Positions 22,736-45,617 of a DNA stretch of 64,000 nt are shown here, one piece after another (position 1 is the stretch's first letter; every line of letters begins with the position of its first letter). Source of the DNA: Alphaproteobacteria bacterium (GTDB taxonomy: Bacteria > Pseudomonadota > Alphaproteobacteria > Micropepsales > Micropepsaceae). The position numbers and the translations under genes were made by a program. The notes beneath the pieces are model-generated. The model was not told the origin of the DNA and did no database searches. It saw nothing but the letters and a program-made list of their open reading frames with translations. The stretch is from contig JAFBAL010000054.1 of assembly GCA_019247845.1 (NCBI GenBank), positions 62,001-126,000 on the forward strand, read 5' to 3'.

Positions 22736-25626
22736 TCGTCCGCCTCGTTCCAGCCGCCGAGCGACCATTCGCGCACGCGCGCCAGGTGATCGTAGTCGCC
22801 CGCTAGGTCGGCGCGATAGGGCTGCACGCGCGAATGATAGGGCGTGCTCGCATCGTCGAAGAGCGCGATGCGCTGCGCCAGCCGCGCTTTCGCCTCGGCC
22901 GCGAGCGCATGCGCGTCCACCTTCACCTGGCGAAGCTCGCCGGGCTTGGCGCCGCCGGCGAAGCGGATATAGACGAGCTGCGAGGCCTCGCGCGGCGCCA
23001 CGCCTTCGAAGCCGCCGGCCTCCAGCATCGCCGCTTCCAGCGGCAGCTGCGGGGTGAGCAGCTCCTTGACCTGTTTGTCGGAGGGCGGCGCGCCGGTCTT
23101 GTAGTCGAGGATCGCCGCGGTCCCGTCACGCAGTTCGTCGATGCGGTCGGCGCGGCCGCGCAACGTGAAAGTGCCGCCGGAAGACGCAAACGCCAGCTGG
23201 CCGCCGATCTCCAGATGCGCGCGTGCAATGCCGGCGCGGCGCTCACGCTCCTTGGTCACGAACCAGCGCGCGGCATTCAGGAAGCGCGGCCGCCACAAGG
23301 CCAAGGTCGCGCTCGGCAGGCCGGCGAACAATTCGTCGGCGATCTCGACCAGCCGCAGCTCCGCGCCGGGTGGGATCAGTTGCGGGAATTCGCGGATGAA
23401 ATTCTCCAGCGCCTTGTGCACCACGCTGCCGCGCTCGAGCGGCCCGATCTCGGCATCGAGCGGATCGAGCGGCCTCAAGCCCAGCACGTGCTTGGCATAG
23501 ATCGCGTAAGGATCGCGCAGCCAGGTCTCGATCTCGGTGACGGTCAGGCTGCGCGGACGTGCGGCGACGGGCGGCGTGGGGGCAGGGCGCGCGATGCGCG
23601 GCGCGGGCACCGGCTCCTCCCACGCCTTGTGCAGCGCGATGTAATCCGTCGGCGCGTCGAGCTTGTGGCCGAGGCCCAGGCCGCCGGTCAGCTGCATCAG
23701 CCTTTGCAGCCAGCGCGAGGCGATGGTCGGCGCGCCGTCCGCCTTCATCGCCCGCGTCAGCAGCACTTCGTGCCCCGAGGCCAAGGTTGCGAAGTCGTGG
23801 GCGCTAAGGCCGATGGCGCGCTCCGGCGCTTCCAGGCCGATGGCCTTGCGCATCGGGCGCGAGAACCAGGGGTCGGCGGCGGCTCCGCCGGGCCAGCTGC
23901 CTTCGTTGAGGCTGCCCAGGATCACCAGGTCGAAATGCAGCAGGCGCGCTTCCTGGGGGCCCAGGATCGCAAGCCTGGGATGCTTGCCGAACGGCGGACG
24001 CACCGCGACCGCGCCCATCATCTCGCGGAACAGGGGCGCATAGGCGCTGGCCTCGACGGATGGAAGCGCGGCCGCGTCGCGCGCCAGCTCTTGCACGAAG
24101 CCGTGCGCGGTATTGCCTGCCTCGCCGCGCCACAGCTCTGGCGCCAAGGTCTCGGCGGCTTCGAGATGCAGCGCGAGCGTCCGTGCGATATCGATGGCGG
24201 ACGCAGCGAGCGTCTCTTCCAGCGGCCGCAGCACGCACGCGATTTGCTCGAACCACGGCGCCTTCGCCACGATGCCGTCGAGGCCCGCATCGGGCCTGGG
24301 CCCGCGCAACGCGATGTCGAGCGCGCGCGCATCGGAACGGAACGCCGCCGCGTCGCCCATCGTCGCCAGCGGATGCTTGAGCAGCGCCAGCAGCGGTGCC
24401 GGCGCGAAGCGCGCATCGGCGGCCTCGGCAAGCAGCGAGAGGAACGTGCCGGGCGGGGTGTGCGACAATGGCCGCCCGGCAGAATCGTCGATGGCGATCT
24501 GCCAGCGCTCCAACTCGGACGCGACGCGACGCGCCAGCCCGCGGTCGGGCGTGATCAACGCCGCGGTCTTGTCGGCGGTCTCCAGCGCCTCGCGCAGCGC
24601 GAGCGCGATCACCGCGGCTTCCTCGGCCGGATCGGCAGCGTGGACGAGCGAAAGTCCGTTCAGCCCTTCGGAAATCTCGCCGCCGCCGTGCTCTGCCAGC
24701 GCGCGCCAGGCGTCGGTGGTCGGCGCGGGACGCAAGGTCTCGCGCAGCAGCTGCTCGCGCGCCAGCATCGGCTCGCCGTCCCAGTCGCGCACCGCGGCGC
24801 GCGCCGCACCGATGCGCCCCAGCAGCTGCTTCATGCCGTATTGCGGATGACCTTCGTCGAGATCGTCCCAGCTTTTCTCGTCCAGCGCCTTGTCGAGGCC
24901 GGGCAACACGACCATGCCACGCGGCAGCCGCGCGATGACCTTGAGCAGCTCGCCGGTCGCGGGGATGCTGCCCGTCGAGCCCGCCGCAATGACCGGGCCG
25001 TCCGGCGGATGGGCTTCGAGGCGCTTGGCCAGCGTGCGCAACAGCGCGTTGCGCCGCGCGGCAGGATCGACCGCGCCTTCCTTTTCCAGAAGCTCCGGCC
25101 ATGCGACGCGCAGCACCTCGAGCAGGCCGAGCACGTCGTCCCAATGCGCGGCGAGGGCTTTGGGCGCGAGCGTTTCGAGCGTTTCGAGCTTGCAGCCTTG
25201 CGTCGCGAACTCGTCCATCAGCCGAGCCAGCCCGCCGGCGAGCGACGCGGCCTGTGCGAAGCCCAAGGTTCCGAGCCGCCGCGCTTCGTCCCAGCGGCGC
25301 ACCAGCGTCGCGAGCAACAGGCGCCGCCGCATCGGCGCGATGGCGGGCTTGGCGTCGAGGTCGTCGTCGCCGAACAGCAGCTCGTCCTCGTCGACGTCGC
25401 CCAGCGGCTTGAAATCGGGCAGCAGCGCAGCCCCGCCCAGGACGCGCGCGAAGCCGTCGGCGAAGGTGCGTGCCGCGCGCCGCGTCGGCAGGTAGATGGT
25501 GGCGGCCGCCAGCGCCAGCGGATCGCGCTCGGCGCCCAGCTCGGCGATCATGCCTCGCGCCAGCGTTTCGGCGAAAGGCAGGCTTGCCGCGATGGTGACG
25601 ACGTTCGGGCGGCGCTCAGGCGACAA
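22732..25626 (-). CDS. addB: Double-strand break repair protein AddB
   Basis: The product is 964 aa. Partner of AddA. It has an inactivated helicase-like fold with no Walker A at the N-terminus (begins VVTIAASLPFAETLARGM, then IYLPTRRAARTFADGF), as in alphaproteobacterial AddB. A C-terminal RecB-family nuclease domain carries GRADRIDELRDGTAAILDYKTGAPPSDKQVKELLTPQLPLEA. The end overlaps addA by 4 nt; the start overlaps the murU gene by 11 nt. Confidence 0.93.
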   Translation of the reverse strand: MSPERRPNVVTIAASLPFAETLARGMIAELGAERDPLALAAATIYLPTRRAARTFADGFARVLGGAALLPDFKPLGDVDEDELLFGDDDLDAKPAIAPMRRRLLLATLVRRWDEARRLGTLGFAQAASLAGGLARLMDEFATQGCKLETLETLAPKALAAHWDDVLGLLEVLRVAWPELLEKEGAVDPAARRNALLRTLAKRLEAHPPDGPVIAAGSTGSIPATGELLKVIARLPRGMVVLPGLDKALDEKSWDDLDEGHPQYGMKQLLGRIGAARAAVRDWDGEPMLAREQLLRETLRPAPTTDAWRALAEHGGGEISEGLNGLSLVHAADPAEEAAVIALALREALETADKTAALITPDRGLARRVASELERWQIAIDDSAGRPLSHTPPGTFLSLLAEAADARFAPAPLLALLKHPLATMGDAAAFRSDARALDIALRGPRPDAGLDGIVAKAPWFEQIACVLRPLEETLAASAIDIARTLALHLEAAETLAPELWRGEAGNTAHGFVQELARDAAALPSVEASAYAPLFREMMGAVAVRPPFGKHPRLAILGPQEARLLHFDLVILGSLNEGSWPGGAAADPWFSRPMRKAIGLEAPERAIGLSAHDFATLASGHEVLLTRAMKADGAPTIASRWLQRLMQLTGGLGLGHKLDAPTDYIALHKAWEEPVPAPRIARPAPTPPVAARPRSLTVTEIETWLRDPYAIYAKHVLGLRPLDPLDAEIGPLERGSVVHKALENFIREFPQLIPPGAELRLVEIADELFAGLPSATLALWRPRFLNAARWFVTKERERRAGIARAHLEIGGQLAFASSGGTFTLRGRADRIDELRDGTAAILDYKTGAPPSDKQVKELLTPQLPLEAAMLEAGGFEGVAPREASQLVYIRFAGGAKPGELRQVKVDAHALAAEAKARLAQRIALFDDASTPYHSRVQPYRADLAGDYDHLARVREWSLGGWNEADE

Positions 25627-31324: not shown

Positions 31325-33706
31325 TCAGGCCAGTTTGCGATCCGCGTCCTGAAGGCGCCGGGGCAGATGGCAGCGCACGATCGTTCCATTGTCCGACTCG
31401 ATCTCGACCCAGCCGTCATGCAGCTCGACGAAGCGGTTCACGAGCGCCAGCCCCAGCCCGGCGCCGGCGCGCTGGCCCGAGCGCGCCTTGGCGGCGAAGC
31501 GCTCGAAGACGTTTGCCTTCACCTCGGGCGCGATGCCGGGGCCGGTATCGGCGACGGCGATCTGCACGTCCTCGCCCTCGATGCGGCCGGACAGCGTGAT
31601 CGTGCCGCCGCTGGGCGTGAACTTGCAGGCATTGGAGAGCAGGTTGAACACGACCTGGCGCAGCCGCCGGTCGTCGGCGCGGAACTCGCCCGGTTGCGCC
31701 TCGACGACGAGCGCGAGCCCCGCTTTCGCCGCCATGTCGCCGGCGAGCCCGGCGACGTCCTCGAGCAGCGCCTTCATGTCGATGCGCGTCAGCTCGAGGC
31801 GCAGCGCGCCGGATTCGATCAGCGACAGGTCGAGGATGTCGCTGATCAGCTGCTTGAGCGTATTGGCGCCGGCCACGATGTCGCCGACATATTCCGTCTG
31901 CCGCTTGTTCAGCTCGCCCGGGATGCCGCTCGCGAGGTGTTCGCCGAACCCCAGGATCGTGTTCAGCGGCGTGCGCAGCTCGTAGGAGACGTGCTTGATG
32001 AAGTCGGACTTGAGGCGGTCCGCGGCCTCCAGTGCGTCGTTGCGGTCGCGCAGCGCGCTTTCGATGCGGAAGCGGTCGGTGACGTCGACGAAGGTGACGA
32101 GGATGGCGCCGTCGGGCAGCGCCGACAGGGTCAGCGACAGGATGGTGCGGTCGTTGCGCTCGATCTCGCCCAGGTCGCGGCGGTCGCCCGAGCCCGAGAC
32201 AATGGCCTGGATCAATCCCTCCCACACCTCGGTATCGCCGAACTTCTCGACGCAGGCCGCCGCGATGGCGCGTACATGCGGCTCGCCGGCGAGGTCCTTG
32301 GGCGCAAGCTCCCACAGCCGCGCGAAGCAGGCATTGTGCAGCTTGAGCCGCCCGTCGGGGCCGAACACCGCCACACCCTCGCTCAAGGTGTCCAGCGTCG
32401 CCGACTGCACCTTGATCAGCGTGTTGTAGGAGCTCTCGAGCGTGATGCGCGCGGTCACGTCCTCGTAGAGGAACGTCAGCCCGCCGAAGGGGTGCGGCTG
32501 GGCCACGACGCGCAAGGTCTTGCCGCCCGGAACGTGCCACAGCTCCTCGGGCAGGTATTCCTGCGCCGCGCCGTAGAGCGACAACCGCTCGCGCTTCCAG
32601 GCCTGATAGTCGCGATGCTCCTGCAGCTTTCGCATCTCGCGCAGCCGGTCGAGGATCTCGCCGTCGCTGGGATGGGTGTCGAGCCAGGTCTCCGACAGGC
32701 CCCAGAGCTGCGCATAGGCGCGGTTGTAGAAGGAAAGCTTCTGGTCGCGGCCGAAGATCGCGACCGCGGTGGCGAGGCGATCGAGCGTGTCGGAATGCGC
32801 GTCCAGATGCTGCTGCAGCTTGGCATCGGCCTGGACATTCTCGGTGACGTCGACGGCACTGCCCACGATGGCGCCGTCGTCCATCGGCTGGTGCGTGAAG
32901 GCGAGCGCGCGGCGCTGGCCGCCGATGACGGCGAAGCGGCGCGTCTCCTGCACCTGACGGCTGTTGCGCGCCATGGCGGCGAGGTCGGGCTCGGAACGCT
33001 CCAGCGTCGGCTCCGCGCCCTTGGCGTCGGCGAAGGCGGTGTTGTTCCAGACCAGCTGCAGCGCGCGGTCGCGCACCCAGACCGGGATCGGCAGCGCGTC
33101 GAGCACGGCGCGGTAGTCGAGCGATTGGCCCTTCACCGCGCGCTCGGGCTCGAGCCACACCGCCGCCATGCCGCCGACGGCGCGGCCGCGGAAATGGATC
33201 GGATGGCCGTTCCTGTCATGCGCCGAGAGCGCGAAGGATTCGGCGCGCTCGCTCAAGCCGTCGAGCGCGCGGCTCAGCGCCAGCGCGTCGGGGCCGGCGA
33301 GGCAGGAATCCACCACCGCCTCGGCGCCGCCGTAGGAATAGGGGCCCGAGCCGTCGCGGCCCCACACCACCAGCGCCTCCTTGCCGGCGCCGAGCAGCGC
33401 GTCGCGCTCGCCCACCGCGGCGCGGGTGCGCGCGCCCGCGAGCTTGAGCGCGCGCTTGAGGCGAAAGCTGATCTTCTGCTCGGCCACGGCCCACAGGCCC
33501 GCGGCGATGGCCAGTGCGACCGCGCCCGCGGTCACCGCCGCCAGCACCATGTCGCGCTCGCCGAGGACGGGGAGGAGGCCGGAAGCGGCCGGCACGGCGG
33601 CGGATGCCGAGGTCACGGACGCGGCCGACAGGGCGGCAAAGGTCGCGGCCGCCAGCGTCAGCGCCCCCGTCAATCCCTTCCTGGCAACCCCCGATTCCCG
33701 TCGCAT
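31325..33706 (-). CDS. divL: DivL-type PAS sensor kinase with Tyr in place of the phospho-acceptor His
   Basis: The product is 793 aa. An N-terminal hydrophobic anchor (residues ~10-75) precedes several PAS-like segments (SLDYRAVLDALPIPVWVRDRALQLVWNN; DRLATAVAIFGRDQKLSFYNRAYAQLW; LDTLSEGVAVFGPDGRLKLHNACFARLW). The DHp helix reads FIKHVSYELRTPLNTI, with Tyr575 (TAC, complement of 31982-31984) where kinases have His. N box NLLSNACKFTPSGG, G1 DTGPGIAPE and G2 GAGLGLALVNRF are intact. Tyr-containing HVSYELRTPL is the hallmark of DivL, which in Caulobacter controls CckA/CtrA and cell division. Its place in the ahcY...tsaE neighbourhood agrees. Confidence 0.85.
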   Translation of the reverse strand: MRRESGVARKGLTGALTLAAATFAALSAASVTSASAAVPAASGLLPVLGERDMVLAAVTAGAVALAIAAGLWAVAEQKISFRLKRALKLAGARTRAAVGERDALLGAGKEALVVWGRDGSGPYSYGGAEAVVDSCLAGPDALALSRALDGLSERAESFALSAHDRNGHPIHFRGRAVGGMAAVWLEPERAVKGQSLDYRAVLDALPIPVWVRDRALQLVWNNTAFADAKGAEPTLERSEPDLAAMARNSRQVQETRRFAVIGGQRRALAFTHQPMDDGAIVGSAVDVTENVQADAKLQQHLDAHSDTLDRLATAVAIFGRDQKLSFYNRAYAQLWGLSETWLDTHPSDGEILDRLREMRKLQEHRDYQAWKRERLSLYGAAQEYLPEELWHVPGGKTLRVVAQPHPFGGLTFLYEDVTARITLESSYNTLIKVQSATLDTLSEGVAVFGPDGRLKLHNACFARLWELAPKDLAGEPHVRAIAAACVEKFGDTEVWEGLIQAIVSGSGDRRDLGEIERNDRTILSLTLSALPDGAILVTFVDVTDRFRIESALRDRNDALEAADRLKSDFIKHVSYELRTPLNTILGFGEHLASGIPGELNKRQTEYVGDIVAGANTLKQLISDILDLSLIESGALRLELTRIDMKALLEDVAGLAGDMAAKAGLALVVEAQPGEFRADDRRLRQVVFNLLSNACKFTPSGGTITLSGRIEGEDVQIAVADTGPGIAPEVKANVFERFAAKARSGQRAGAGLGLALVNRFVELHDGWVEIESDNGTIVRCHLPRRLQDADRKLA

Positions 33707-33755
33707 GTTCCGCGAATCACTGTGGAATCAATACGGTACCCACATTGGGTGAGTC
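33693..33755. promoter_or_regulatory. Cluster of four GANTC (CcrM-type) sites at the divL start
   Basis: GATTC 33693-33697, GAATC 33714-33718, GAATC 33725-33729 and GAGTC 33751-33755, spanning the divL start codon and its upstream region. GANTC is the CcrM methylation target in alphaproteobacteria and marks GcrA/CcrM-controlled promoters. Four in 63 nt is dense for GC-rich DNA. Confidence 0.55.
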
Positions 33756-33771
33756 CGCATAGGGATTGTGG

Positions 33772-33786
33772 TTAACAAATCGTAAA
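33772..33786. promoter_or_regulatory. CtrA-box-like site TTAA-N7-TAAA
   Basis: One mismatch from the CtrA consensus TTAA-N7-TTAA, 66 nt upstream of divL and 83 nt upstream of the divergent GloVer gene. Both AT-rich halves stand out against the GC-rich background. A 9-nt direct repeat TAGGGATTG (33760-33768 and 33811-33819) surrounds it. Confidence 0.4.
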
Positions 33787-33868
33787 AAGCCTAGTGGTTG
33801 TGAAACCGCCTAGGGATTGCCGGTGTGGACAAGCTTGACCACGGCGGCGCAATCTCCACCCTGTCCCG

Positions 33869-35038
33869 ATGGACAGATCATGGCTTGGAGCGATCGCCGC
33901 CGCTCTGATCTCCTTCGGCGCCCAGGCGGACGATTTCCACACCCTCTATGCCTTCGCCGGCGGTCTGGACGGCGAGGCGGTCGCCGGCATTGTCCAGGAC
34001 GCGGCCGGAAATCTCTACGGCACCACGTCCGCGGGCGGCGATGGGGCTTGCGATTGCGGGACGATCTTCAAGCTCGCGCCCGACGGCACCAAGACGCTCT
34101 ATTCCTTTACAGGCGCAAGCGACGGCGCATACCCGCTCACGGGCCTGGCCATCGACCGCGCCGGAAATCTCTACGGCACCACGAGCAAGCCGGACCGCGG
34201 CACGGTGTTCAGGCTCGACGCTAGCGGCCGCCTTACGACGCTGCATGCCTTCGCGGGCGCGGAAGACGGCGACGCGCCGCTCGGCAGCCCGATCCTGGAC
34301 CGCAAGGGCAAGCTCTACGGCACCACCGTGCGCGGCGGGCATTGGGGCCGCGGCACGGTCTACAAGATCACGCCCGACGGACGCGAGCGCGTGCTCCATG
34401 CCTTCGGCGGCACGACCAGGGATGGCGACGGCGACGGCCCGGCCTCATCGCTGATCCTGAACCGCGACGGCAACCTGTACGGCGCCACCGGCTATGGCGG
34501 CAGCAGCGCCTGCAACGACCGCGGCTGCTGCGCGACGCCCGGCTGCGGCACCGTGTTCAAGGTCGCGCCGGACGGGACGACGACCATCCTCTATCGCTTT
34601 CCTGGGGGCAGCCAGGGCGAGCTTCCCGTCGGCGCCGTCGCGATGGACAAGGCGGGCAACCTGTTCGGCGCGACCGAGCAGGGCGGCGTCGGCGCCGGCA
34701 ACGGCGGCGGACTGGTCTACAAGCTGACTCCGGACGGCGTGAAGTCGGACCTGCATGCTTTCCAGATCGCGACCGGCGCCGTGCCGCATGTGGGCGTGAT
34801 CGTCGACCGGCGCGGCAACCTTTATGGCACGGCGAGTGGCGGCGCGTTCGGCCAGGGCGTCGCCTATGCGCTGACGCGGCGCGGCAGGTACACGGTGCTG
34901 CACGACTTCACCGACGACAACGATCCTTCCGCCAACGCGCTTATTTTGGGCGTTGGCGGGGATCTGATCGGCTCGACCAGGGCCTACTCGTTCGAGTGCC
35001 CCAGCGCCTGCGGCACGGTATTCAGAATCGCGCGCTGA
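33869..35038 (+). CDS. Secreted GloVer-repeat protein without repeat cysteines
   Basis: The product is 389 aa. Short signal peptide (WLGAIAAALISFGAQA-DD). About seven GloVer repeats follow, each ending in NLYGTTSxGG...GTIFKLxPDGxxxxLYxF (e.g. HTLYAFAGGLDGEAVAGIVQDAAGNLYGTTS, TTLHAFAGAEDGDAPLGSPILDRKGKLYGTT). Unlike the 917-2281 paralogue, most repeats lack the Cys pair; the few cysteines lie together in one insertion (ACNDRGCCATPGCGTVF). Function unknown. Divergent from divL; convergent and directly abutting the hydroxylase gene. Confidence 0.85.
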   Translation: MDRSWLGAIAAALISFGAQADDFHTLYAFAGGLDGEAVAGIVQDAAGNLYGTTSAGGDGACDCGTIFKLAPDGTKTLYSFTGASDGAYPLTGLAIDRAGNLYGTTSKPDRGTVFRLDASGRLTTLHAFAGAEDGDAPLGSPILDRKGKLYGTTVRGGHWGRGTVYKITPDGRERVLHAFGGTTRDGDGDGPASSLILNRDGNLYGATGYGGSSACNDRGCCATPGCGTVFKVAPDGTTTILYRFPGGSQGELPVGAVAMDKAGNLFGATEQGGVGAGNGGGLVYKLTPDGVKSDLHAFQIATGAVPHVGVIVDRRGNLYGTASGGAFGQGVAYALTRRGRYTVLHDFTDDNDPSANALILGVGGDLIGSTRAYSFECPSACGTVFRIAR

Positions 35039-35596
35039 TCACGACGCCGACAAACGGCCTGGCGGATTGAACATCACGTCGGTGCGCAGCACGTATTTGC
35101 GGCCCTTGGTGACCGCGCTGCCCTCGTGGAACAGCGCGTGGCGGAACAGCAGGGCCATGCCGCGCTCGGGTGCCACGACGACGTCGCGGAACGCGGTCGC
35201 GCCGCCCTCGAAGCCGTCGTTCAGATAGATCATGAAGGTGATGAGGCTCTGCTCGCCGTTGTCGCGGCGGAACGGCGCGTCCTCGTGGCCCGCGAACCGC
35301 TCCGCCGGGTCGTAACGATAGAAGCGGAAGCGCTCGTTGACGCCGATCGCCTGGCGGCCGGCGAGGAAGGGCGGCACGTGCTGGCGCACGCGGTGCCACA
35401 ACGCGGCGGCGCGCGCGTGGTCGTCCTCGATCGCGCGGGCATTGTTGCGGATGGAGCGGGCGAGCTCGGCTCCGCCGCCGCTCTGGATCGCCGCCGGCTC
35501 GTAGCCGATGCGTTCGGAATGGCGGATGAGCTGCGCACATTCCGCCGCATCGGCGAAGCCGGGGATCGTGACGATGCCGTCGGCCAGCTCGGGCAC
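35039..35596 (-). CDS. Prolyl 4-hydroxylase-like 2-oxoglutarate/Fe(II) dioxygenase
   Basis: The product is 185 aa from a GTG start at 35596, one nt after the ahcY stop. The double-stranded beta-helix iron site reads FAGHEDAPF (H-x-D) with a distal His in LFHEGSAVTKGRKYVLRTD, where the Lys/Arg can bind 2-oxoglutarate. SLITFMIYLNDGFEGGATAF is typical of P4H-like proteins. It hydroxylates a protein or small-molecule target; the substrate is unknown. Coupling to ahcY may only reflect transcription. Confidence 0.8.
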   Translation of the reverse strand: MPELADGIVTIPGFADAAECAQLIRHSERIGYEPAAIQSGGGAELARSIRNNARAIEDDHARAAALWHRVRQHVPPFLAGRQAIGVNERFRFYRYDPAERFAGHEDAPFRRDNGEQSLITFMIYLNDGFEGGATAFRDVVVAPERGMALLFRHALFHEGSAVTKGRKYVLRTDVMFNPPGRLSAS

Positions 35597-35597
35597 G

Positions 35598-37004
35598 TCA
35601 GTAGCGGTAGTGATCCGGCTTGAACGGGCCGGCCTCGGGCACCGAGATGTAGTCCGCCTGCTTCTTGCTGAGCTTGGTCAGCTTCACGCCGATCTTGTCG
35701 AGATGCAGGCGCGCGACCTTCTCGTCCAGCGCCTTGGGCAGGGTATAGACCTTCTTCTGGTACTTGCCCTGGTCCTTGAACAGCTCGATCTGCGCCAAGG
35801 TCTGGTTCGTGAACGACGAGCTCATCACGAAGCTCGGATGGCCCATGGCGTTGCCGAGGTTCACCAGGCGCCCTTCGGAGAGAAGGATGAGGCGCTTGCC
35901 GTCGGCGAACTCGATCTCGTCGACCTGCGGCTTGATGTTGTTCCACTTGAGGTTCTTGAGCGCGGCGACCTGGATCTCGCTGTCGAAGTGGCCGATGTTG
36001 CAGACGATGGCGCGGTCCTTCATCGCGCGCATATGCTCGATCGTGATGACATCCACGTTGCCGGTGGCGGTGACGAAGATGTCGGCGCGGGGAGCGGCGT
36101 CCTCCATCGTCACGACCTCGTAGCCTTCCATCGCGGCCTGGAGCGCGCAGATCGGATCGATCTCGCTCACCAGCACGCGGCAGCCGGCCTGGCGCAGCGA
36201 AGCGGCCGAGCCCTTGCCGACGTCGCCGAAGCCCGCGACCATCGCGACCTTGCCGGCCATCATCACGTCGGTGCCGCGGCGGATGCCGTCGACGAGCGAC
36301 TCGCGGCAGCCGTAGAGGTTGTCGAACTTCGACTTGGTGACGCTGTCGTTGACGTTGATCGCGGGGAAGAGGAGCTTGCCCTCCTTCTCCATGATGTAGA
36401 GGCGGTGCACGCCAGTCGTCGTCTCTTCCGACACGCCCTTGATGTTGGCCGCGACCTGGGCGAACCAGCCCTTGGGCTTCTCGGTGAGCAGGCGTTTGAT
36501 CAGCGCGTAGAAGACCTCTTCCTCCTCGTTCTCGGGCTTGTCGAGGAAGGCCGTGTCGCCCTTCTCCGCGCGCAGGCCGTGATGGACGAGCATCGTGGCG
36601 TCGCCGCCGTCGTCCAGGATCATGTTGGGATAGCCGCCGCCGTGCCAGTCGAAGAGCTTGGCGGTGTAGTCCCAATAGTCCTTCAGGCTCTCGCCCTTGA
36701 TCGCGAAGACCGGCGTGCCGCCGGCGGCGATGGCTGCCGCGGCGTGATCCTGCGTCGAATAGATGTTGCACGACACCCAGCGCACGTCGGCGCCCAGGGC
36801 CTTCAAGGTCTCGATCAACACCGCGGTCTGGATCGTCATGTGCAGCGAGCCCGCGATGCGCGCGCCCTTCAGCGGTTGCGACGCGCCGTATTCCTCGCGC
36901 GTGGCCATCAGGCCGGGCATCTCGGTCTCGGCGATGGAGATCTCCTTGCGGCCGAAATCGGCGAGCTTGATGTCGGCAACGGCATAATCGGGGGCGGCGG
37001 CCAT
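35598..37004 (-). CDS. ahcY: S-adenosylhomocysteinase
   Basis: The product is 468 aa. Hydrolyses SAH to homocysteine and adenosine, clearing product inhibition of methyltransferases. Features: NAD-binding [17 protein letters not shown], substrate region [28 protein letters not shown], the lysine region [24 protein letters not shown], and the C-terminal KPDHYRY that reaches the partner subunit. ATG at 37004 ([22 protein letters not shown]) is chosen over a longer start. A candidate promoter and a palindromic operator lie directly upstream. Confidence 0.96.
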
Positions 37005-37037
37005 GGGCGGAATCCTTCGATGGAGCAAAGCGCGCGC

Positions 37038-37066
37038 GATATAGCAGGGCCGCGGGAGCGGGGCAA
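37038..37066 (-). promoter_or_regulatory. ahcY: Candidate ahcY promoter
   Basis: On the minus strand, TTGCCC (37066-37061) and an extended -10 TGC-TATATC (hexamer 37043-37038) are spaced by exactly 17 nt, 34 nt before the ahcY ATG. Confidence 0.5.
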
Positions 37067-37070
37067 GGAG

Positions 37071-37092
37071 GATATAAAGAAATCTTTATGTC
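37071..37092. promoter_or_regulatory. Near-perfect palindrome upstream of ahcY (SahR-like operator candidate)
   Basis: Ten-nt arms GATATAAAGA and TCTTTATGTC around AA, one mismatch. It abuts the -35 box of the ahcY promoter. AT-rich palindromes before SAM-cycle genes are bound by the ArsR-type SahR regulator in some proteobacteria; assigning SahR here is inference. Confidence 0.45.
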
Positions 37093-37093
37093 T

Positions 37094-38077
37094 TTATTTG
37101 TTCTGCGCCCGATCGGCCATGTCGGGGTTGAGCCGCTTCATCTCCAGGAACGCGAGCCCGTGACGTAGGCCGTAGCCGCTTACGCGGATGATGTCGTAGC
37201 CAAGCCTCATGGCGATCAGCATGAGGAACGCCGAACCGGCGATGATACGGGGAGCTTCGTCTTCGCTTCCGGACCGCGAATCCACATATCTGCGTGCCCG
37301 GACCGGGTCCTTCTCGTACATCTTCAGTATTTGAGCACGTTCTTGAAATATCCGGTTGAGCTCCAGGCAGGTGTCGTTGACCAGATGCGGCTTGTAGAAA
37401 TCCGCTTCGTTTTCGCGCACTTTCAGCCACGCCAGCTTTGTCGCGACGCTGCCAAGAGCATAAAGGATGTGGTCACTGCCGCCCCTGTGCTTGCGGAGCA
37501 CGTCCTCGTAGCTCGACATCGCGTCTTGAAAGGCACGTAGATAGTTCGCACTCGACGACAGGAACATGTCCACGGCCTTCTGTGCTCCGAAGTCGATGCT
37601 GTCGAGAGTCGGAGCGTCCAGCCCCTGTCCGGACCAGGTGGCGGAAATGAACTCCGTGCTGCCGCCGCCCTGATCGACCACGGTGATGCGGCGCCCCACG
37701 GTCCGCCCGCGCAAGCACATGAAGCCCGCCGCCCAGGACGCGGTCGCCTCCTCGGCCGGGCTCAACACCTTCAAATAGGGCCTCAGGCTCATGCCGCGCT
37801 GCGCGATGCGCCGGCACAAGGCCGTGCCATATACCATCGTCGAGTCGCATTCGAACTTTTCGATCTCATCGCGGTAGGCATCGAGCTGCATGCCGAGCGC
37901 GGCGAGATCCGCATCGCCGATGTTGTCGATATTGATGTTGTGAAGCTGCGAGTCCGTGCGCAGCGCCTTGAAGGAACCGTCGGCGTCGAAGTCGGCGATC
38001 ATCAGCCGAAGGGAGCGGCTTCCCACCTCGGCAACGCCGATCTTCAAGTGCTTCCCCGCCTGCAACCGATTCGGCAT
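37094..38077 (-). CDS. Ppx/GppA-family phosphatase-like protein, partner of the TIR-STAND gene
   Basis: The product is 327 aa from ATG 38077 (MPNRLQAGKHLKIGVAEVGSRS), four nt after the TIR gene stop; an upstream in-frame start at 38155 would overlap that gene by 74 nt. Only the ASKHA N-terminal type core is present. Phosphate-1 loop IGVAEVGSRSLRLMIADF is at 13-30, GTALCRRIAQ at 84-93, catalytic acidic motif VLSPAEEATASWAAGF around E109/E110, and phosphate-2 loop VVDQGGGSTEF at 133-143. Housekeeping Ppx is about 500 aa with extra domains, so this is a short, specialised version. Substrate could be polyphosphate, (p)ppGpp or another nucleotide; not determinable here. Confidence 0.75.
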   Translation of the reverse strand: MPNRLQAGKHLKIGVAEVGSRSLRLMIADFDADGSFKALRTDSQLHNINIDNIGDADLAALGMQLDAYRDEIEKFECDSTMVYGTALCRRIAQRGMSLRPYLKVLSPAEEATASWAAGFMCLRGRTVGRRITVVDQGGGSTEFISATWSGQGLDAPTLDSIDFGAQKAVDMFLSSSANYLRAFQDAMSSYEDVLRKHRGGSDHILYALGSVATKLAWLKVRENEADFYKPHLVNDTCLELNRIFQERAQILKMYEKDPVRARRYVDSRSGSEDEAPRIIAGSAFLMLIAMRLGYDIIRVSGYGLRHGLAFLEMKRLNPDMADRAQNK

Positions 38078-38081
38078 CGCA

Positions 38082-40568
38082 TCACGTTCCGTTGCTTGCC
38101 GCTTGCGGCGGTTTGGGCTCAAGAACGGATTCGACGCGGCCGAATGTCCTTTCAAAGCTGTCGCGGGCCTTGTTGAAGTCTTTGGCCCAAGCCGCTCGAT
38201 GGGGCCGGCGCCTGAGTTCGATCTCGGCCGACTTCAATAGTTGTGCCTTCATCCGTCTATTGTATTCTGTTTCCACAGGCACGACGTCGGCCCATTGGAG
38301 CAGATTTCCGACGTCGAGATGAAGTTCTTTTCCTCGAAATTGCCTGTCGGCATGTGCATAGAGCGCGCCGATGCGTTTCTTCCCTTCCGGCCCAGGCTCA
38401 GATTTGTTACCCCATCTCGCCCTCTCGAAAAGCACATAGGCATGAAGAAGCGCGTTGCAGCGCAGCTCGGTATCGGGCGAGCTCACTGCGACTTGCGCCG
38501 TCAGAACGCGCTCGAAGTTCGAGAACGCAACAATCTTGTCCGTCAAGTTCAATATATCCCCGCCGTTCCCGTACACTTTCGCCAGCTGGCGTGCCGCGCG
38601 CAACACCATGGTCAGGGTCTTGGGGTCCCTGATATGCGCTCCGTCGTCTCCGACGGCACGCTCGCAGAGGCGGCGAACCTCGACGGCCAAGGACTTGTCG
38701 CGCATTCTGAACGACCGTAGCATGCACAGCGTGCCGGCCCACTGCGCGTACAGCCGCTCATCGGCCGCGCGATGGAGAATGTCGATGATACGGCTTCCGA
38801 AATCCGCGATGAGCGCGTCGGCGATGTCCAGCCGGTCTTCATTCTTGACTTCCGGGATAGGGTAGAATTGCATTTTCGTCAGGCGCTGGAAAATGTGCCT
38901 TATGTATTCGACTTCTTGAACGACCCATGCCTGGGTGTTCGCCTCCGCGAATTCGATCGAGCTCCGCATGGTTTCACGAAAGGTGGCGAGAATGAAGTCC
39001 TTGTCCAGCTTGCCCAGGCTGCGCAGGACAATCTGCGCGCGGTAGCCCGAGGTAAGCGCGAAGCCCGGCCAGTCGCCTTTGACCCTGCTTATGCGATGCG
39101 AAAGCCGCGCAATCGCGTTGGCATCGCCCCGGATGCCCTCGTTCGCAAGGGCGGCCGACGTCAGGCGGTGTGGGACGGCCAAGCCGAAAATCTGCGAAGC
39201 CGCTAGGAACGCGATGGCGCGCTGCGCCGCATCAGATTCCTGCTGGATGTCGCTGAACCAGCTTTCGCGGAACTGGGGTGCGGGCGTGGAATTCTTGAGT
39301 ACATATTCTATGAAGCTAGGGACGTCATTTTCATAGTCGCGCTTACGCGGATGCCGCAGAAGCATGTCGGCATAGGTGTCGAATCTTTTGTAGGCGACGA
39401 TCGGCGGAGCCTCGGTCAGGGCATGGAATACCCGCTCTTCTTCCGCGGGTGTTAGCATGAGCTGGACGAGGTTCTCGCTGGCGCTTGCAAGCGTGACCTC
39501 GTCATCGATCGTCGCGGTCACGATCGACACGCTCGCGCCGATCGCATCCGAGAAAGCCTTCGCCTTGCTGTAGAAGCGGAACAGGCAGCCCGCCTCTTCA
39601 TTGTTCGAAATATTGTCGATGACGAACGTTACTTTTCTCGGCATCGCGCCCGCCTTGCGGAACGCGTCGTATAGAGCATCGAGCTCGGTTTGACGGTCGA
39701 GCGGCGGTAGATCGTGTTGGTCGAGGCGCCAGAACGTGACGAGCCCGGGCTCGCGACAAAGCCTCGCCACGATCTGCGCCAGGGCAATGGTCTTGCCTTG
39801 GCCGGGTCTTGCCAGGATGGTGTACGCTGAAAAACCCCCAGGTTGCGCGATGATCGACGCGGCGATGTGATGCGCACTGTCGCGCTTGAACGTCAGCTGC
39901 GCAGCTTCCATCTCGAGCACCGAAAGATTGAGCACTGTGGCGGGCGTAAAGCCGCCATAGAGGATGAACTTCTGCTGTTGTGCGATATCTATGATCGAAG
40001 CCGTGGGAAAGACGTATTCGAAGAGGTTTGGAATTTCGAGGTGGCCGGACCCGGGACGCAAGCGCATGGCGTCGAGCAGGGGCCAGAAGCCGCCGCTTTT
40101 CTGCTGGCGGAAATCGATTTGCTTGCCGTCATATGTTCGCGCTTCGATCGCGTTGCCTGGCCACGGCAGCAAGGCGTTTGCGACTGTCTGCGCGGCAGCT
40201 TGCGGGTCGAGGCCCTTCACGTCGATGTAGCTTATGGGCGCGCTCAGCGGCAGCATCGACGTCTCTGCAAGCATTACCGGGATAAGCTTGCGGCTGGCGC
40301 CAAGAGGATCCTGCCACCACGCCGCATGAATTTCGGCCTGGGAGTAGACGGCGCTCTCCGCGACGTAGTTCGGCGAATAGAGCGCCAGCGTCTGCGTGCT
40401 GTTCGCCAGCGCGGCGCCCATCCACATCGGGATGTTGCCGCCGGGCTTGAGGTCGCGCGGGTGGTAGTAGGTCGTGAACCCCGCGGTGCGCAGCGCGGCG
40501 TCGATCGCTTGGGCATAGGCGAGGTCGGCGCTGTTGAAACTGATGAAGAAATCGCGCCTATCGGTCAT
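38082..40568 (-). CDS. TIR domain - STAND/AAA NTPase protein (candidate immune sensor-effector)
   Basis: The product is 828 aa. An N-terminal TIR domain (residues ~6-135) is recognisable from FFISFNSADLAYAQAIDAALRTAGFTTYYHPRDLKPG, then LALYSPNYVAESAVYSQAEIHAAWW, where E79 sits at the position of the NADase catalytic glutamate. A P-loop NTPase follows: Walker A ARPGQGKT at 253-260, Walker B KVTFVIDNI with D318. The C-terminal ~400 residues are mainly helical with no named repeat, fitting a sensor or oligomerisation region. GAGGTGG precedes the ATG. Base composition is lower in GC than neighbours in places. TIR-STAND proteins are known antiphage effectors; the pairing with a Ppx-like gene is what is unusual. 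Confidence 0.8.
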   Translation of the reverse strand: MTDRRDFFISFNSADLAYAQAIDAALRTAGFTTYYHPRDLKPGGNIPMWMGAALANSTQTLALYSPNYVAESAVYSQAEIHAAWWQDPLGASRKLIPVMLAETSMLPLSAPISYIDVKGLDPQAAAQTVANALLPWPGNAIEARTYDGKQIDFRQQKSGGFWPLLDAMRLRPGSGHLEIPNLFEYVFPTASIIDIAQQQKFILYGGFTPATVLNLSVLEMEAAQLTFKRDSAHHIAASIIAQPGGFSAYTILARPGQGKTIALAQIVARLCREPGLVTFWRLDQHDLPPLDRQTELDALYDAFRKAGAMPRKVTFVIDNISNNEEAGCLFRFYSKAKAFSDAIGASVSIVTATIDDEVTLASASENLVQLMLTPAEEERVFHALTEAPPIVAYKRFDTYADMLLRHPRKRDYENDVPSFIEYVLKNSTPAPQFRESWFSDIQQESDAAQRAIAFLAASQIFGLAVPHRLTSAALANEGIRGDANAIARLSHRISRVKGDWPGFALTSGYRAQIVLRSLGKLDKDFILATFRETMRSSIEFAEANTQAWVVQEVEYIRHIFQRLTKMQFYPIPEVKNEDRLDIADALIADFGSRIIDILHRAADERLYAQWAGTLCMLRSFRMRDKSLAVEVRRLCERAVGDDGAHIRDPKTLTMVLRAARQLAKVYGNGGDILNLTDKIVAFSNFERVLTAQVAVSSPDTELRCNALLHAYVLFERARWGNKSEPGPEGKKRIGALYAHADRQFRGKELHLDVGNLLQWADVVPVETEYNRRMKAQLLKSAEIELRRRPHRAAWAKDFNKARDSFERTFGRVESVLEPKPPQAASNGT

Positions 40569-40646
40569 CTATTCCACCTCGTCCCGCGGTTGAAAGCTGG
40601 CAGAGGCACGCGAAGCAGGCAAGGCCCGAATAGTCGGAAGGTTCCT

Positions 40647-41585
40647 CTACGGCCCCTTCACCCTATATCCCCTGCGTCTGAGCAGGTTCGGCACGCCGCC
40701 CGGGCCCACGAGATGCGCGGCGCCGACGGTGACGAAATAGGTCTTGTCGTCGTTGTCGAGCATGCTTGCGAGCTTTTCGGCCCAGGCCTGGTTGCGGTCG
40801 TCGAGCAGCGCCTTGCGCGCGGCCGGATAGTTCTTGAACGCCTTGCCCATCAGCGCATCGAGCCGGTCGGTCTTGGCGTGCATCCAGGCATCGAGCATCG
40901 GGCCGACGTCGTCGCCCTGGGCTTCCGTCTTCGAGCTCTTCAGCGAAGCCTCGAAGGATTCGAGCTCGACCTTGGGATCGCTCGGCACGATCAGCGCCAT
41001 CTGCTGCTCGATGGTCTCGAGCCCGATCACCGGCTTCTGCGCCGCGCCGCCGTCGCCGTCCTTGAGACTCATCTCGACGCCGGCGGCCGAGCTGTAGTTC
41101 TTCTTCTTCATCTCGGCGATGTCGAACATCAGCGAGGCGAGCCACGGCCGCAAATGGTCGACCGCGGCCGGCGCGATGGAAAGGTTCTCGAGCTCGGCGT
41201 CGAACTCGCCTTTCGCCTCGGGCGAGAGCATGTCGCGCAGGTGCTGGCCCTCGGGCAGCTTGCCGCGCGTCTGGATGTAGGACTGGACTTCGCCCTGCAG
41301 CTTGTCGCCGAAGGCCAGCTCGAAGACCATCACGTCGGACCTGGCCATCGCGGCGTCGATCTCCTTTGTGTGCCAGTCGACGTTGGCGGGCAGCACATGG
41401 ATCGAGCCGAACAGATAGGCGGTACCTTTGCGTCCATGCGCCGTCCACATCGCCGGATGCGCCGGCATCTTGGCGTAGACCACGCCGCCTCCGGTCGTGG
41501 CGTCGTCCGCGAACGCCGGCAGCGCGAGGACGATGACGAGCGCGGCGAGCAGCTTGCGCACCGATGGGAGGAACATCTTCTGCAT
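40647..41585 (-). CDS. TraB/GumN family secreted protein
   Basis: The product is 312 aa. Signal peptide LLAALVIVLALPAFA. The TraB/GumN signature is present: TAYLFGSIHVLP near the N-terminus, VFELAFGD, and YFVTVGAAHLVGPGGVPNLLRRRGYRV at the C-terminus, providing the conserved GxxH motifs and Glu. Some family members (Tiki-like) are metalloproteases; others are uncharacterised. The start overlaps the amidohydrolase stop by one nt (TGATG), so the gene belongs to the amidohydrolase unit. Confidence 0.85.
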   Translation of the reverse strand: MQKMFLPSVRKLLAALVIVLALPAFADDATTGGGVVYAKMPAHPAMWTAHGRKGTAYLFGSIHVLPANVDWHTKEIDAAMARSDVMVFELAFGDKLQGEVQSYIQTRGKLPEGQHLRDMLSPEAKGEFDAELENLSIAPAAVDHLRPWLASLMFDIAEMKKKNYSSAAGVEMSLKDGDGGAAQKPVIGLETIEQQMALIVPSDPKVELESFEASLKSSKTEAQGDDVGPMLDAWMHAKTDRLDALMGKAFKNYPAARKALLDDRNQAWAEKLASMLDNDDKTYFVTVGAAHLVGPGGVPNLLRRRGYRVKGP

Positions 41586-42942
41586 CAACGATAGCCGAGC
41601 GACGGGGCGTGCTTGCCGAGGTCGCGGTAGCGGTCGCGCAGCTCGGTCTGGCGCGAGGTCCTCGGCATCTGCACGCCCTTGATGAACACCGCCGTCGGCG
41701 CGCTGGTGACGTCGAGCGGATCGCCGTCCCAGATCACCACGTCGCCGTCCTTGCCGGGCTCCAGCGTGCCGTAGCCGTCGATGCCCAATGCTTGCGCCGG
41801 GTTCTTCGTGATCGCGGCCAGCGCATGCTCCCAGTTCATGCCGTTGGCGACCGCATTGCCCGCGATCTGCGTGATGGTGCGCGCGTAATGCGAGGCGGCG
41901 CCGAACTGCGGCATGAAGATCACGCTGACGCCAGCCGCGTCGAGCCGCGCCGCGTTCTTCAAGGTCGAGCCGAGCTCGGCGAAGTTCGCGGGCAGGTTCT
42001 TGTTGTTGTCGATGACGACCGGCACATGCGCCGCGGCGAGATCGCCCGCCACGCGCCATGCCTCGGCGCCACCCAGGATGATGAGCTTGATCTTGTTTCC
42101 TTGCGCATATTGCACCACCTGCCGGATGGTCGAGGCGCGCTCGACATGCACCAGCAACGGCTCGCGGCCCTGGATCACCGGGCCCAGCGCGTCGAGATCG
42201 ACGCGGTTGCTGCGCTGGTCGCGGCTGCCGCCGGGACGGTGATAGCCGCCGCGCTGCGCCCAATATTCTCGCGCGTCGTCGAGCGTCTCGCGGAACTTGG
42301 TCCAGAGATCGGGGCGCGAGTTCTTCTGGCCCGTGCCGCCCACCGGCTCGAGCACCGCGAGCACGCCCGCCTGGCGCTTGTCGATCAGGTCGGGTCCGTT
42401 GCCCAGATCGATCACCGCCGAGGTGCCGCAGAACACGTCGCCGCAATCGCCGGGCGTGGTCAGCGAGCGCGTGACGCCGCGGATGCGCGCCACCGGGATC
42501 AGGCTCGACGACGGATTGACCGCGTCGGCGACGTCGAAGGCCGCGCCCTCGAAGGCCGTGTTCGGCGTGGTGTCGTTGCCTTCGCTGACGAGATCGATCT
42601 CCAGGATGCCGAGCTGCGTCCACGACGCCATCAGCCCCGGCGTCACCGGCTTGCCCTTGGCGTCGATGACCTTGGTCTCGGGCGTGACGGGAAGGTTCTG
42701 TCCGACCTGTTCGATCTTGCCGTTCCGGATCAGTACGTCGCCATCGGGCAGCGTGCCGGCCGCGCCGACGGTATAGACGCGCGCGTGCTTGATCAGCGTG
42801 CCGTTGACGTTGCCCGAGACCGGCAATTGCGTTCCGCCGGGCACGCGGATTTCGTAATGCATGCGGGGTTGGCTTGCCGGTTGCGCGATGGCTGCCGTCG
42901 TGGACAGCAGGATGACCGCGAAAATATTCTTCATTGCCCGGT

Positions 42943-42946
<4 letters not shown>
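41585..42946 (-). CDS. Amidohydrolase-family protein lacking the HxH metal motif
   Basis: The product is 453 aa with a signal peptide (FAVILLSTTAAIAQ). The amidohydrolase framework is clear: LIKHARVYTVGAAGTLPDGDVLIRNGKIEQVG at the N-terminus and ALAAITKNPAQALGIDGYGTLEPGKDGDVVIWDGDPLDV at the C-terminus. However the first metal motif, normally PGxIDxHxH, reads VTPGLMASWTQLGILEI, and later sites have VIDNNKNLP where His is expected. It is probably inactive, or a non-catalytic partner of the adjacent amidohydrolase. Start at 42946 overlaps the upstream gene as ATGA. Confidence 0.8.
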
Positions 42947-44376
<1,430 letters not shown>

Positions 44377-44445
44377 CCCATGCCCCTCAGAGAAAGCCGG
44401 CGAAGAGTGGCGCGCGGGCGTCCGGGGTGCAAGCGGGGTGGGACC

Positions 44446-44715
44446 TTAGTCCTCGCCGAACTTGGCCTCGGCCAGCGCCACGATCGCCTTGAGCGCCTCG
44501 ACCGCGTCGGCGCCTTCGGCACAGACCTCGACCTCGGTGCCGAAGCTCGCCTCCAGCATCATCAGTCCCATGATCGAGCGGCCGTCGACGGTCTGCCCGC
44601 CCTTGCTCACGGTGACGTGCGACTGGAACCGCGCCGAGGCTTCTACGATCTTGGCGCTGGCGCGCGCGTGCAGCCCCTTCTTGTTGACGATCCTGACGAC
44701 GGCGCAATGACGCAC
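44446..44715 (-). CDS. ptsH: Phosphocarrier protein HPr
   Basis: The product is 89 aa, read from GTG 44715 four nt after the EIIA stop; a longer frame upstream lies wholly inside EIIA. The active-site His is in IVNKKGLHARASAKIV and the regulatory Ser region is DGRSIMGLMML, the target of HprK. In alphaproteobacteria lacking sugar EIIBC components here, this HPr is mainly regulatory. Confidence 0.93.
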   Translation of the reverse strand: MRHCAVVRIVNKKGLHARASAKIVEASARFQSHVTVSKGGQTVDGRSIMGLMMLEASFGTEVEVCAEGADAVEALKAIVALAEAKFGED

Positions 44716-44719
44716 GGTT

Positions 44720-45118
44720 CTAGTGCCCCAGCTCGATCGAGCCGGCGCGCATGTATTTGCGGCCCGCCTCGATGGCATCCTTCACCGCCTGCTCGAGCGG
44801 CACGCGGCCGCGCACCTCGATCAGCTTGATCAGGCTCGGCAGGTTGACGCCCGCCAGCACCTCGACCTTGCCGCGCTCGAGCAGCGTGAGCGCCAGGTTG
44901 CACGGCGTGCCGCCGAACATGTCGGTGGCGATGACGACGCCCTGGCCCTGGTCGATGGCCTTGGCGGCGGCCGCGATCTCGCGCTGGCGCCGCTCGATGT
45001 CGTCCTCGGGCCCTATGCAGACGGCGCGCAGCGACGTCTGCGGGCCGACCATGTGCTCCATCGCCGAGATGAATTCCTGCGCCAGCCGGCCATGGGTGAC
45101 CAGAACGATGCCGATCAT
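44720..45118 (-). CDS. manX: PTS EIIA component, mannose-family (regulatory)
   Basis: The product is 132 aa from ATG 45118 (MIGIVLVTHGRLAQEF). The phosphorylatable His is in VLVTHGRLA. VVIATDMFGGTPCNLAL is the EIIA-Man signature. It accepts phosphate from HPr; no EIIB/C/D gene is near, so its role is probably signalling. An upstream start at 45148 would overlap hprK and is less likely. Confidence 0.9.
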   Translation of the reverse strand: MIGIVLVTHGRLAQEFISAMEHMVGPQTSLRAVCIGPEDDIERRQREIAAAAKAIDQGQGVVIATDMFGGTPCNLALTLLERGKVEVLAGVNLPSLIKLIEVRGRVPLEQAVKDAIEAGRKYMRAGSIELGH

Positions 45119-45128
45119 GTGGACTGGG

Positions 45129-45617
45129 TCATTTGGATTGGGCCCCATCGCGGAACAGATTGCGCTCGAAGGCGGCGACGGCGAGCGCGATCTTCTCGGG
45201 CGCCGAGCTTTCGAAGGCGGCGAGTCTTAACAGAGGCACGGGCACCGGCAAGTCCCAGGGCGCTTTGTAATGTTCTTCACGCGGCAGCCGCGGAACCTTC
45301 TGGTCGAGCTGCACGGCGAGCGCGACCCGCGCCTTGTGCGCATGCGGCAGCGCCACGATGCCGACGCCGCGCGCCTCGATCAGCCCGCGCAGATTTGCCG
45401 GCGGCTTGGCCACGAGATGCCCGCCTTGCTCGCTCAACTCGGTGCGGTCGTCGCTGACCAGGATGGCGCCGCGCGAGATCAGCCGCAGCGCGAGGTCGGA
45501 CTTGCCCGAGCCGCTCTTGCCGAGCAGCAGCACGCCCGCGTCGCGCGAGGCGCCGAAAGTGCCGCCGGCGTGCGCGAGCACGACGCAGGTCGCGTGGACA
45601 TTGATTGTGTTCGGCAT
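45129..45617 (-). CDS. hprK: HPr kinase/phosphorylase, short alphaproteobacterial form
   Basis: The product is 162 aa, about half the Gram-positive protein, consisting of the C-terminal kinase domain only, as usual in alphaproteobacteria. Begins NVHATCVVL; Walker A is VLLLGKSGSGKSDLALRLI, followed by AILVSDDRTEL. It phosphorylates or dephosphorylates HPr on Ser. Its start overlaps the chvG stop by one nt. Confidence 0.92.
   Translation of the reverse strand: MPNTINVHATCVVLAHAGGTFGASRDAGVLLLGKSGSGKSDLALRLISRGAILVSDDRTELSEQGGHLVAKPPANLRGLIEARGVGIVALPHAHKARVALAVQLDQKVPRLPREEHYKAPWDLPVPVPLLRLAAFESSAPEKIALAVAAFERNLFRDGAQSK

What the first reader, a model, noticed from the sequence alone, without database searches (positions are those of the whole stretch)
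37094..40568. TIR-STAND NTPase paired with a short Ppx/GppA-like phosphatase: candidate undescribed defence system
Seen: an 828-aa protein with a TIR domain (putative catalytic E79), a P-loop NTPase (Walker A 253-260, D318) and a long helical C-terminus. Four nt later comes a 327-aa Ppx/GppA-like protein with intact phosphate loops and a candidate catalytic Glu. The pair sits alone in an otherwise conserved core block. GC dips locally: I counted 29 of 60 at 38521-38580. Known: TIR domains cleave NAD+ or make signal nucleotides, and STAND NTPases act as phage sensors. Inference: the Ppx-like enzyme could degrade the signal, act on (p)ppGpp or polyphosphate as an alarm input, or be a second effector. 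I do not know of a named system with this composition.
Basis: partly seen in the sequence, partly recalled or inferred. Interest (0 to 1): 0.85.

Follow-up and report, generated by a model that had tools for sequence, protein, structure and literature searches.

The report
TIR-STAND immune protein beside Ppx-like enzyme
A two-gene insert in a bacterial genome encodes a probable infection-sensing protein that may shut the cell down by destroying NAD, followed directly by a divergent phosphatase whose partnership with it is suggestive but, for lack of a second example, unproven.

Summary
On the minus strand, 38082-40568 encodes an 828-aa protein (TIR, nSTAND5-type P-loop NTPase, probably helical C-terminus) and 37094-38077 a 327-aa two-domain Ppx/GppA-like protein, 4 nt apart. 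The pair is the lowest-GC 3.5 kb of the 126 kb of contig read. It lies between ahcY and a TraB-family gene; no match to either gene was found at ahcY in 17 of 17 relatives fetched. TIR E79 aligns with a glutamate of bacterial TIR structures. The phosphatase keeps Thr85, Arg89, Glu110, Asp135 and Glu142, but the magnesium Asp is Glu17 and REG is RHG. It is not the only ppx: the genome has two others, one beside ppk.

Strong nSTAND5 proteins elsewhere carry SIR2 or metallophosphoesterase domains where this one has TIR, so it is best read as a TIR variant of effector-STAND (Avs/NLR-like) defence proteins. Recurrence of the pair was sought and not found; the one broken sensor relative has no Ppx beside it, and 0 of 20 other nSTAND5 loci do. 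A new two-component system stays possible (about 0.25). No function was tested.

The parts
38082..40568 (-). TIR-nSTAND5-type protein, 828 aa: TIR about residues 7-123 (E79), P-loop NTPase with Walker A 253-260 (K259) and Walker B D318, probably helical C-terminus
   Evidence: helix assignment from a low-confidence model
37094..38077 (-). Ppx/GppA-like phosphatase, 327 aa, two-domain form, third member of the family found in this genome
38078..38081 (-). 4-nt gap between the TIR-STAND stop and the Ppx ATG: likely one operon with translational coupling (inferred)
37074..37089 (-). palindrome (7-bp arms, 2-nt centre) of the ahcY upstream region, 4 nt past the Ppx stop; belongs to ahcY and marks the limit of the insert

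Best explanation
A horizontally acquired two-gene cassette. The first gene encodes an Avs/NLR-like abortive-infection protein: the C-terminus binds a phage product (inferred), the nSTAND5 NTPase oligomerises with ATP (inferred from the family), and the clustered TIR domains cleave NAD+ through E79 (inferred from conserved residues), which stops growth before phage release. The second gene, probably co-translated, encodes a divergent but probably active Ppx/GppA-type phosphoanhydride hydrolase. It most likely serves the first as an accessory, by trimming a nucleotide or polyphosphate that modulates the response, or is carried with it. Shown: domains, catalytic residues, gene spacing, foreign base composition, absence from the same site in the relatives fetched. 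Inferred: every activity, phage defence itself, and the functional link between the two genes (about 0.45 on its own).
For: TIR_2 and nSTAND5 matches. E79 invariant in 6 of 6 TIR rows and on a Glu of 7uxr, 3h16 and 6wt6. Seven strong nSTAND5 proteins were scanned by Pfam: three carry SIR2 (818, 839, 818 aa), one a calcineurin-like phosphoesterase (952 aa), all four with the NTPase between residues 300 and 513; so TIR sits where other effectors sit. The other three (L061, L062, L064) have no recognised N-terminal domain but a same-strand gene of 270-300 aa directly upstream, so nSTAND5 proteins with a separate partner gene do occur, though not with Ppx. P0002 keeps T85, R89, E110, D135, G137-S140 and E142, which by motif correspond to DrPPX T82, R86, E114, D136 and E143 (PMC11234463, passages). 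4-nt spacing. Lowest GC of the contig read. No TIR or Ppx match in 17 of 17 relatives' ahcY stretches.
Against: No second example of the pair in any collection searched; 0 of 20 nSTAND5 loci with Ppx. No defence island: of nine neighbouring genes scanned, eight have no PADLOC match and one matches only a general 2OG-oxygenase model. nSTAND5 score is at the Pfam cut-off. Structure models were poor (mean pLDDT 43 and 40), so no fold was checked. Ppx Mg-ligand Asp is Glu and REG is RHG.
Confidence: 0.55

Rival explanations
1. The TIR-STAND protein is a complete one-gene defence system; the Ppx-like gene is a passenger beside it with a separate role, for example in phosphate or alarmone metabolism.
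For: Other nSTAND5 loci have no Ppx nearby: 0 of 20 over-cut-off loci, of 21 besides the window. The remnant of a C-terminal relative in G038 has no Ppx beside it, and G038 has no P0002 match at E<=1e-3. TIR-NLR is described as one protein that protects (PMC9122126, passages).
Against: 4-nt spacing on one strand, shared low GC and joint absence from relatives suggest that the two travel together. The G038 relative is a remnant (three stops in the 561-811 match) beside transposase-like ORFs in a fragmented assembly, so loss of a partner cannot be excluded.
Confidence: 0.33
2. The Ppx-like protein is the input side: it reads or degrades (p)ppGpp or polyphosphate, and phage-induced change of that pool releases the TIR-STAND protein.
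For: The genome has a RelA/SpoT protein and a PPK1-type kinase, so both compounds can exist. The two-domain form with changed metal ligand and pocket residues (E17, R21, H306) could suit binding rather than turnover.
Against: Two other Ppx/GppA proteins can serve these pools. STAND proteins normally sense through their own C-terminus (recalled). No direct evidence.
Confidence: 0.12
3. Not phage defence: a stress or developmental signalling cassette that uses TIR chemistry.
For: No defence genes among the nine neighbours scanned and a site beside housekeeping genes.
Against: Patchy presence, foreign composition and an effector-STAND architecture whose family members carry SIR2 are typical of defence genes.
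Confidence: 0.1

Closest known systems
SIR2-nSTAND5 and metallophosphoesterase-nSTAND5 proteins (unnamed; L060, L063, L065, L059)
   Same: N-terminal effector, nSTAND5 NTPase, C-terminal region, 818-952 aa
   Different: Effector is TIR here; a Ppx-like gene follows; nSTAND5 score lower here (30.5 bits, against 49-110 bits)
TIR-NLR of P4-like satellites (Rousset et al. 2022, PMC9122126)
   Same: TIR plus central STAND NTPase in one protein, proposed to degrade NAD+ (passages)
   Different: That one has C-terminal TPRs; P0001 has no TPR match at E<=1, and a second gene follows
AVAST/Avs STAND defence proteins
   Same: Effector-STAND-sensor layout (recalled; AVAST is mentioned in the PMC9122126 passages)
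   Different: No Avs model matched P0001; only two weak models over the TIR region did
Aquifex-type short Ppx/GppA (1t6c, 1t6d, 2j4r)
   Same: Nearly full-length alignment, best E 7.7e-6, catalytic motifs
   Different: DxGS is ExGS, REG is RHG
TIR-STAND-TPR plus NTase-conflict pair (L030, G344)
   Same: TIR-STAND protein followed by a nucleotide-acting enzyme gene 23 nt downstream
   Different: Partner is a Pol-beta-type nucleotidyltransferase, not Ppx; the protein has AAA_16/NB-ARC and TPR matches

Membership tests
TIR NADase | TIR fold | tested here: met
   TIR_2 E 1.2e-21; a profile that includes it finds 49 solved sequences at E<=0.001, nearly all TIR proteins; by sequence, no reliable model
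TIR NADase | catalytic glutamate | tested here: met
   E79 invariant in 6 of 6 rows and on a Glu in 3 of 5 solved alignments shown (7uxr, 6wt6, 3h16; not 4w8h, 4w8g); that this Glu is catalytic is recalled
TIR NADase | NAD+ cleavage | not testable with these tools
   needs an enzyme assay
STAND NTPase (nSTAND5) | profile match over the curated cut-off | tested here: inconclusive
   30.5 of 34 bits; 34.1 bits 'with its neighbours in the frame'
STAND NTPase (nSTAND5) | Walker A and Walker B motifs | tested here: met
   ARPGQGKT 253-260, FVIDN with D318
TIR-NLR (Rousset 2022) | C-terminal TPR repeats | tested here: not met
   no TPR family at E<=1 in P0001
Avs | match to a described Avs protein model | tested here: not met
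   PADLOC at E<=1: only SAVED_TIR and PDC-S66, TIR region
Avs | activation by a phage protein through the C-terminus | not testable with these tools
   needs co-expression tests
Ppx/GppA | Pfam match over cut-off | tested here: met
   PF02541 42.8 bits against 27
Ppx/GppA | catalytic Glu, Asp, Glu and GGGS loop | tested here: met
   E110, D135, E142, G137-S140, mapped by motif to DrPPX
Ppx/GppA | Mg-binding Asp of the first loop | tested here: not met
   Glu17 in its place; a conservative change
Ppx/GppA | REG motif | tested here: not met
   RHG 305-307
Thoeris | ThsA effector gene next to the TIR gene | tested here: not met
   the adjacent genes are Ppx-like and TraB family, then ahcY

The most novel reading that the evidence does not exclude
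A two-component abortive-infection system not yet described: a TIR-nSTAND5 sensor makes an ADP-ribose- or NAD-derived signal, or depletes NAD+, and a dedicated Ppx/GppA-derived enzyme with an altered active site sets the threshold, by destroying the signal or by acting on (p)ppGpp or polyphosphate. It would be the first Ppx/GppA-family member wired into phage defence that I know of.
Probability: 0.25. Interest if true: 0.75.

Novelty: new variant of a known kind. Interest (0 to 1): 0.42.

Why it matters
The TIR-nSTAND5 protein extends the effectors seen on one STAND module (SIR2, metallophosphoesterase, now TIR), which supports effector exchange. If the Ppx-like enzyme proves to be a partner, it would tie the stringent-response and polyphosphate enzyme family to NAD-based immunity, a link testable with two genes in a laboratory E. 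coli strain.

Tried and rejected
Structure prediction from single sequences gave mean pLDDT 43.3 (P0001) and 40.2 (P0002); no fold search was run on such models. Weak P0003 matches L035 and L036 (E 0.004 and 0.008) were read as chance after viewing ORFs of their surroundings. The plasmid match H10 (E 2e-3) is a 497-aa ORF with a Ppx-type part and no evident TIR-STAND neighbour, by inspection. TIR matches in G344, G218, G096, G037 and G031 share only the TIR domain with P0001; no Ppx match in the eight stretches checked. L095 and L096 are Ppx genes without a TIR match nearby. In alignment A3 row L001 was on the wrong strand; A4 replaced it. One search tested Ppx on 1.5-kb flanks that often end inside or near the gene; searches repeated it on larger stretches. 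The PADLOC scan of 48 window proteins shows 25 of 57 families and not which protein each matches; a GajB-rich set comes from 19337-22768, a UvrD helicase with a PD-(D/E)XK nuclease (AddA-like); the other matches were not all traced, so absence of further defence genes in the window is shown only for the nine neighbours. The 48 were 47 of 57 ORFs kept plus the TraB gene.

Papers: PMC7159879 and PMC8195603 were searched by term: ppx, gppa, exopolyphosphatase and nSTAND5 occur zero times in the main text of either. Library searches combining GppA or exopolyphosphatase with TIR, STAND or phage-defence terms: 20 of 78 listed; 20 of 24; 2 of 2; 8 of 8, without the Ppx term; none; 15 of 163. Nothing listed describes such a pair, judged from titles, counts and abstract openings. 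One search was swamped by unrelated 'tir-' words. This is absence in that open-licence library only.

Not done: fold comparison; a tree of Ppx/GppA; metagenome contigs (no quota); a genome-contig scan with P0001 itself (the two scans used P0002 and A1).
Full report
WHAT IS THERE. Both ORFs exist as described. The upstream gene (38082-40568, minus) starts with a TIR domain (TIR_2, residues 7-123, E 1.2e-21), carries a P-loop NTPase that best fits Pfam nSTAND_NTPase5 (30.5 bits, cut-off 34; 34.1 bits 'with its neighbours in the frame'), and ends in a region that a low-confidence model shows as helical. The downstream gene (37094-38077, minus) matches Ppx/GppA (42.8 bits, cut-off 27), aligns with TIGR03706 over residues 13-310, and among solved proteins aligns best with short exopolyphosphatases 1t6d, 2j4r and 1t6c (2j4r is Aquifex aeolicus, an N-domain-only form, according to PMC11234463). 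The TGA of the first and the ATG of the second are 4 nt apart. A TTG start would give 353 aa overlapping the first gene; I take the ATG as likelier (judgement).

ACTIVE SITES. In an alignment of six TIR domains E79 is invariant. Against solved proteins, a profile of these six puts it on a glutamate in 7uxr, 3h16 and metazoan TIR-STING 6wt6, but not in 4w8h and 4w8g, an animal Toll-related receptor (5 alignments shown of 49 matches). That this is the NADase glutamate in bacterial TIRs is recalled. For the Ppx-like protein I used the residues that PMC11234463 reports for DrPPX (passages): D7 (Mg), T10, N11, S12, T82, R86, E114, D136, E143 and the REG motif. By motif (the DrPPX sequence itself was not seen) they correspond to E17, S20, R21, S22, T85, R89, E110, D135, E142 and R305-H306-G307. 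So the catalytic core is kept, while the metal ligand, a pocket residue and the REG motif have changed. Identity to six other Ppx/GppA fragments is 22-25%, so it is not a recent copy of the two other family members of this genome. One of those lies beside the one PPK1-type kinase found (C36: ppk match 31910-32443, Ppx match 33735-34562; PPK2 was not searched). One RelA/SpoT match is present. The assembly is 92% complete.

SITE AND HISTORY. Of 41 genomes searched for ahcY, 34 match. I fetched the region from 17 of them, the closest matches with enough contig. None of the 17 stretches has a TIR or Ppx match at E<=1e-5. In 12 of 17 HPr and EIIA lie on the 5' side of ahcY as in the window; in 7 of 17 a TraB-family gene lies there, in three of these (L047, L049, L050) within about 100-160 bp of ahcY. 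L043 has the window's order without the cassette (ahcY, TraB, two amidohydrolases, HPr, EIIA), with a 113-aa ORF in its 571-bp gap. In five (L044, L055-L058) HPr and EIIA were not found in the stretch, some of which end at a contig end. Several relatives have other ORFs in this gap, so it is a place of gene turnover rather than a frozen block. Four nt past the Ppx stop lies ATAAAGATTTCTTTAT (37074-37089; none expected by chance with up to one mismatch), part of a stretch with recognisable counterparts before ahcY in the relatives (by eye); the cassette thus ends just outside the ahcY upstream region. The pair has 60.3% GC against 66.8% and is the lowest stretch of its size in the 126,000 of 128,546 bases read. 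I infer acquisition by horizontal transfer.

RELATIVES. P0002: family, 9 of 96 genomes at E<=1e-3, namely the window's and 8 with weak matches of 26-31% identity; class, 1 of 385 at 1e-6, the window's own; phylum, 3 of 195 at 1e-5, the window's own and two Ppx genes without a TIR match nearby; phages none at 0.01; plasmids none at 1e-5, one weak match at 0.1; scans of genome contigs and viral contigs none. P0001: order, 4 of 96, namely its own, a C-terminal relative in G038 and two TIR-only; class, 5 of 385, namely its own and four TIR-only; phylum with residues 141-828, 3 of 398 at 0.01, of which two were read as chance; plasmids, 9 records over the TIR region only, none for 141-828 at 0.1; phages none at 1e-3; viral contigs none. 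The genome sets overlap, and pattern scans find close relatives only. The one C-terminal relative, G038 (the same stretch came back as JAFECN010000008.1, MAG 'Proteobacteria bacterium isolate SZAS-34'), matches P0001 residues 561-811 at 30% with three stops, or 563-718 at 36% without. Transposase-like and recombinase-like ORFs lie upstream (named by eye). No Ppx match lies in that stretch.

FAMILY CONTEXT. A search with nSTAND5 over 398 genomes was noisy (394 of 398 have some match at E<=0.001; the 14 control genomes all ring, none over the cut-off), but 22 of 398 pass the cut-off, the window's included. Seven strong ones scanned by Pfam: SIR2-nSTAND5 (3), metallophosphoesterase-nSTAND5 (1), and three without a recognised N-terminal domain that follow a same-strand gene of 270-300 aa with no Pfam match (L061, L062, L064). 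So nSTAND5 proteins take exchangeable effectors, and some have a separate partner gene, which keeps the pair reading alive. Larger stretches around 20 of the 21 other over-cut-off matches hold no Ppx and no TIR match (0 of 20, E<=1). As a control the same Ppx profile finds six of six Ppx genes that were not in its alignment (L037; L007, L010, L012, L095, L096). Several stretches end at a contig end and many of the 20 score only just over the cut-off, so the test is fair but not exhaustive.

SURROUNDINGS. Of nine neighbouring genes (33869-45617, the pair itself apart), eight have no PADLOC match at E<=0.001 and one matches only a general 2OG-oxygenase model. There is no defence island at hand.

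HOW IT MOST LIKELY WORKS. By analogy to effector-STAND proteins, including the TIR-NLR of P4-like satellites (PMC9122126, passages), the C-terminus senses infection, the NTPase oligomerises, TIR consumes NAD+ and the cell stops. I hold this at about 0.75 for the first protein alone (judgement). The Ppx-like enzyme may be an accessory (0.45) or a passenger. I commit to accessory as slightly more likely because of the 4-nt spacing, shared composition and joint absence from relatives, but one locus cannot separate the two.

VERDICT. The finding is real. The first protein is a new variant of a known kind. The claim of a new two-component system is unproven; its main predicted evidence, recurrence, was sought and not found.

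Noticed in passing
window 37074-37089: Palindrome ATAAAGATTTCTTTAT upstream of ahcY, part of a stretch with counterparts in relatives; resembles an SAH-responsive (SahR-like) operator, a recalled resemblance.
   Followed up: partly
5' side of ahcY in L042-L058: In the 12 relatives that keep HPr/EIIA, a gap of about 0.1 to 3.3 kb to the next shared gene, often with different ORFs: a turnover site.
   Followed up: partly
L061, L062, L064: nSTAND5 proteins directly preceded by a same-strand gene of 270-300 aa that looks alike in the three and has no Pfam match: possibly another two-gene nSTAND5 module; its start recalls DarT-like proteins (recalled).
   Followed up: partly
L030 1397-4929 (G344:C19): TIR-STAND-TPR protein followed 23 nt later by an NTase-conflict nucleotidyltransferase gene.
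   Followed up: no
L017 about 7530-10700 (G038:C389): Remnant of the only C-terminal relative of P0001, downstream of recombinase-like and transposase-like ORFs named by eye.
   Followed up: partly
G000 contigs C26, C17, C38, C12: Four further TIR_2 proteins in the same genome (open frames 554-1472 aa); no Ppx match in the three stretches checked.
   Followed up: partly
G000:C36:31910-34562: PPK1-type kinase match next to a Ppx/GppA match: the likely housekeeping pair.
   Followed up: partly
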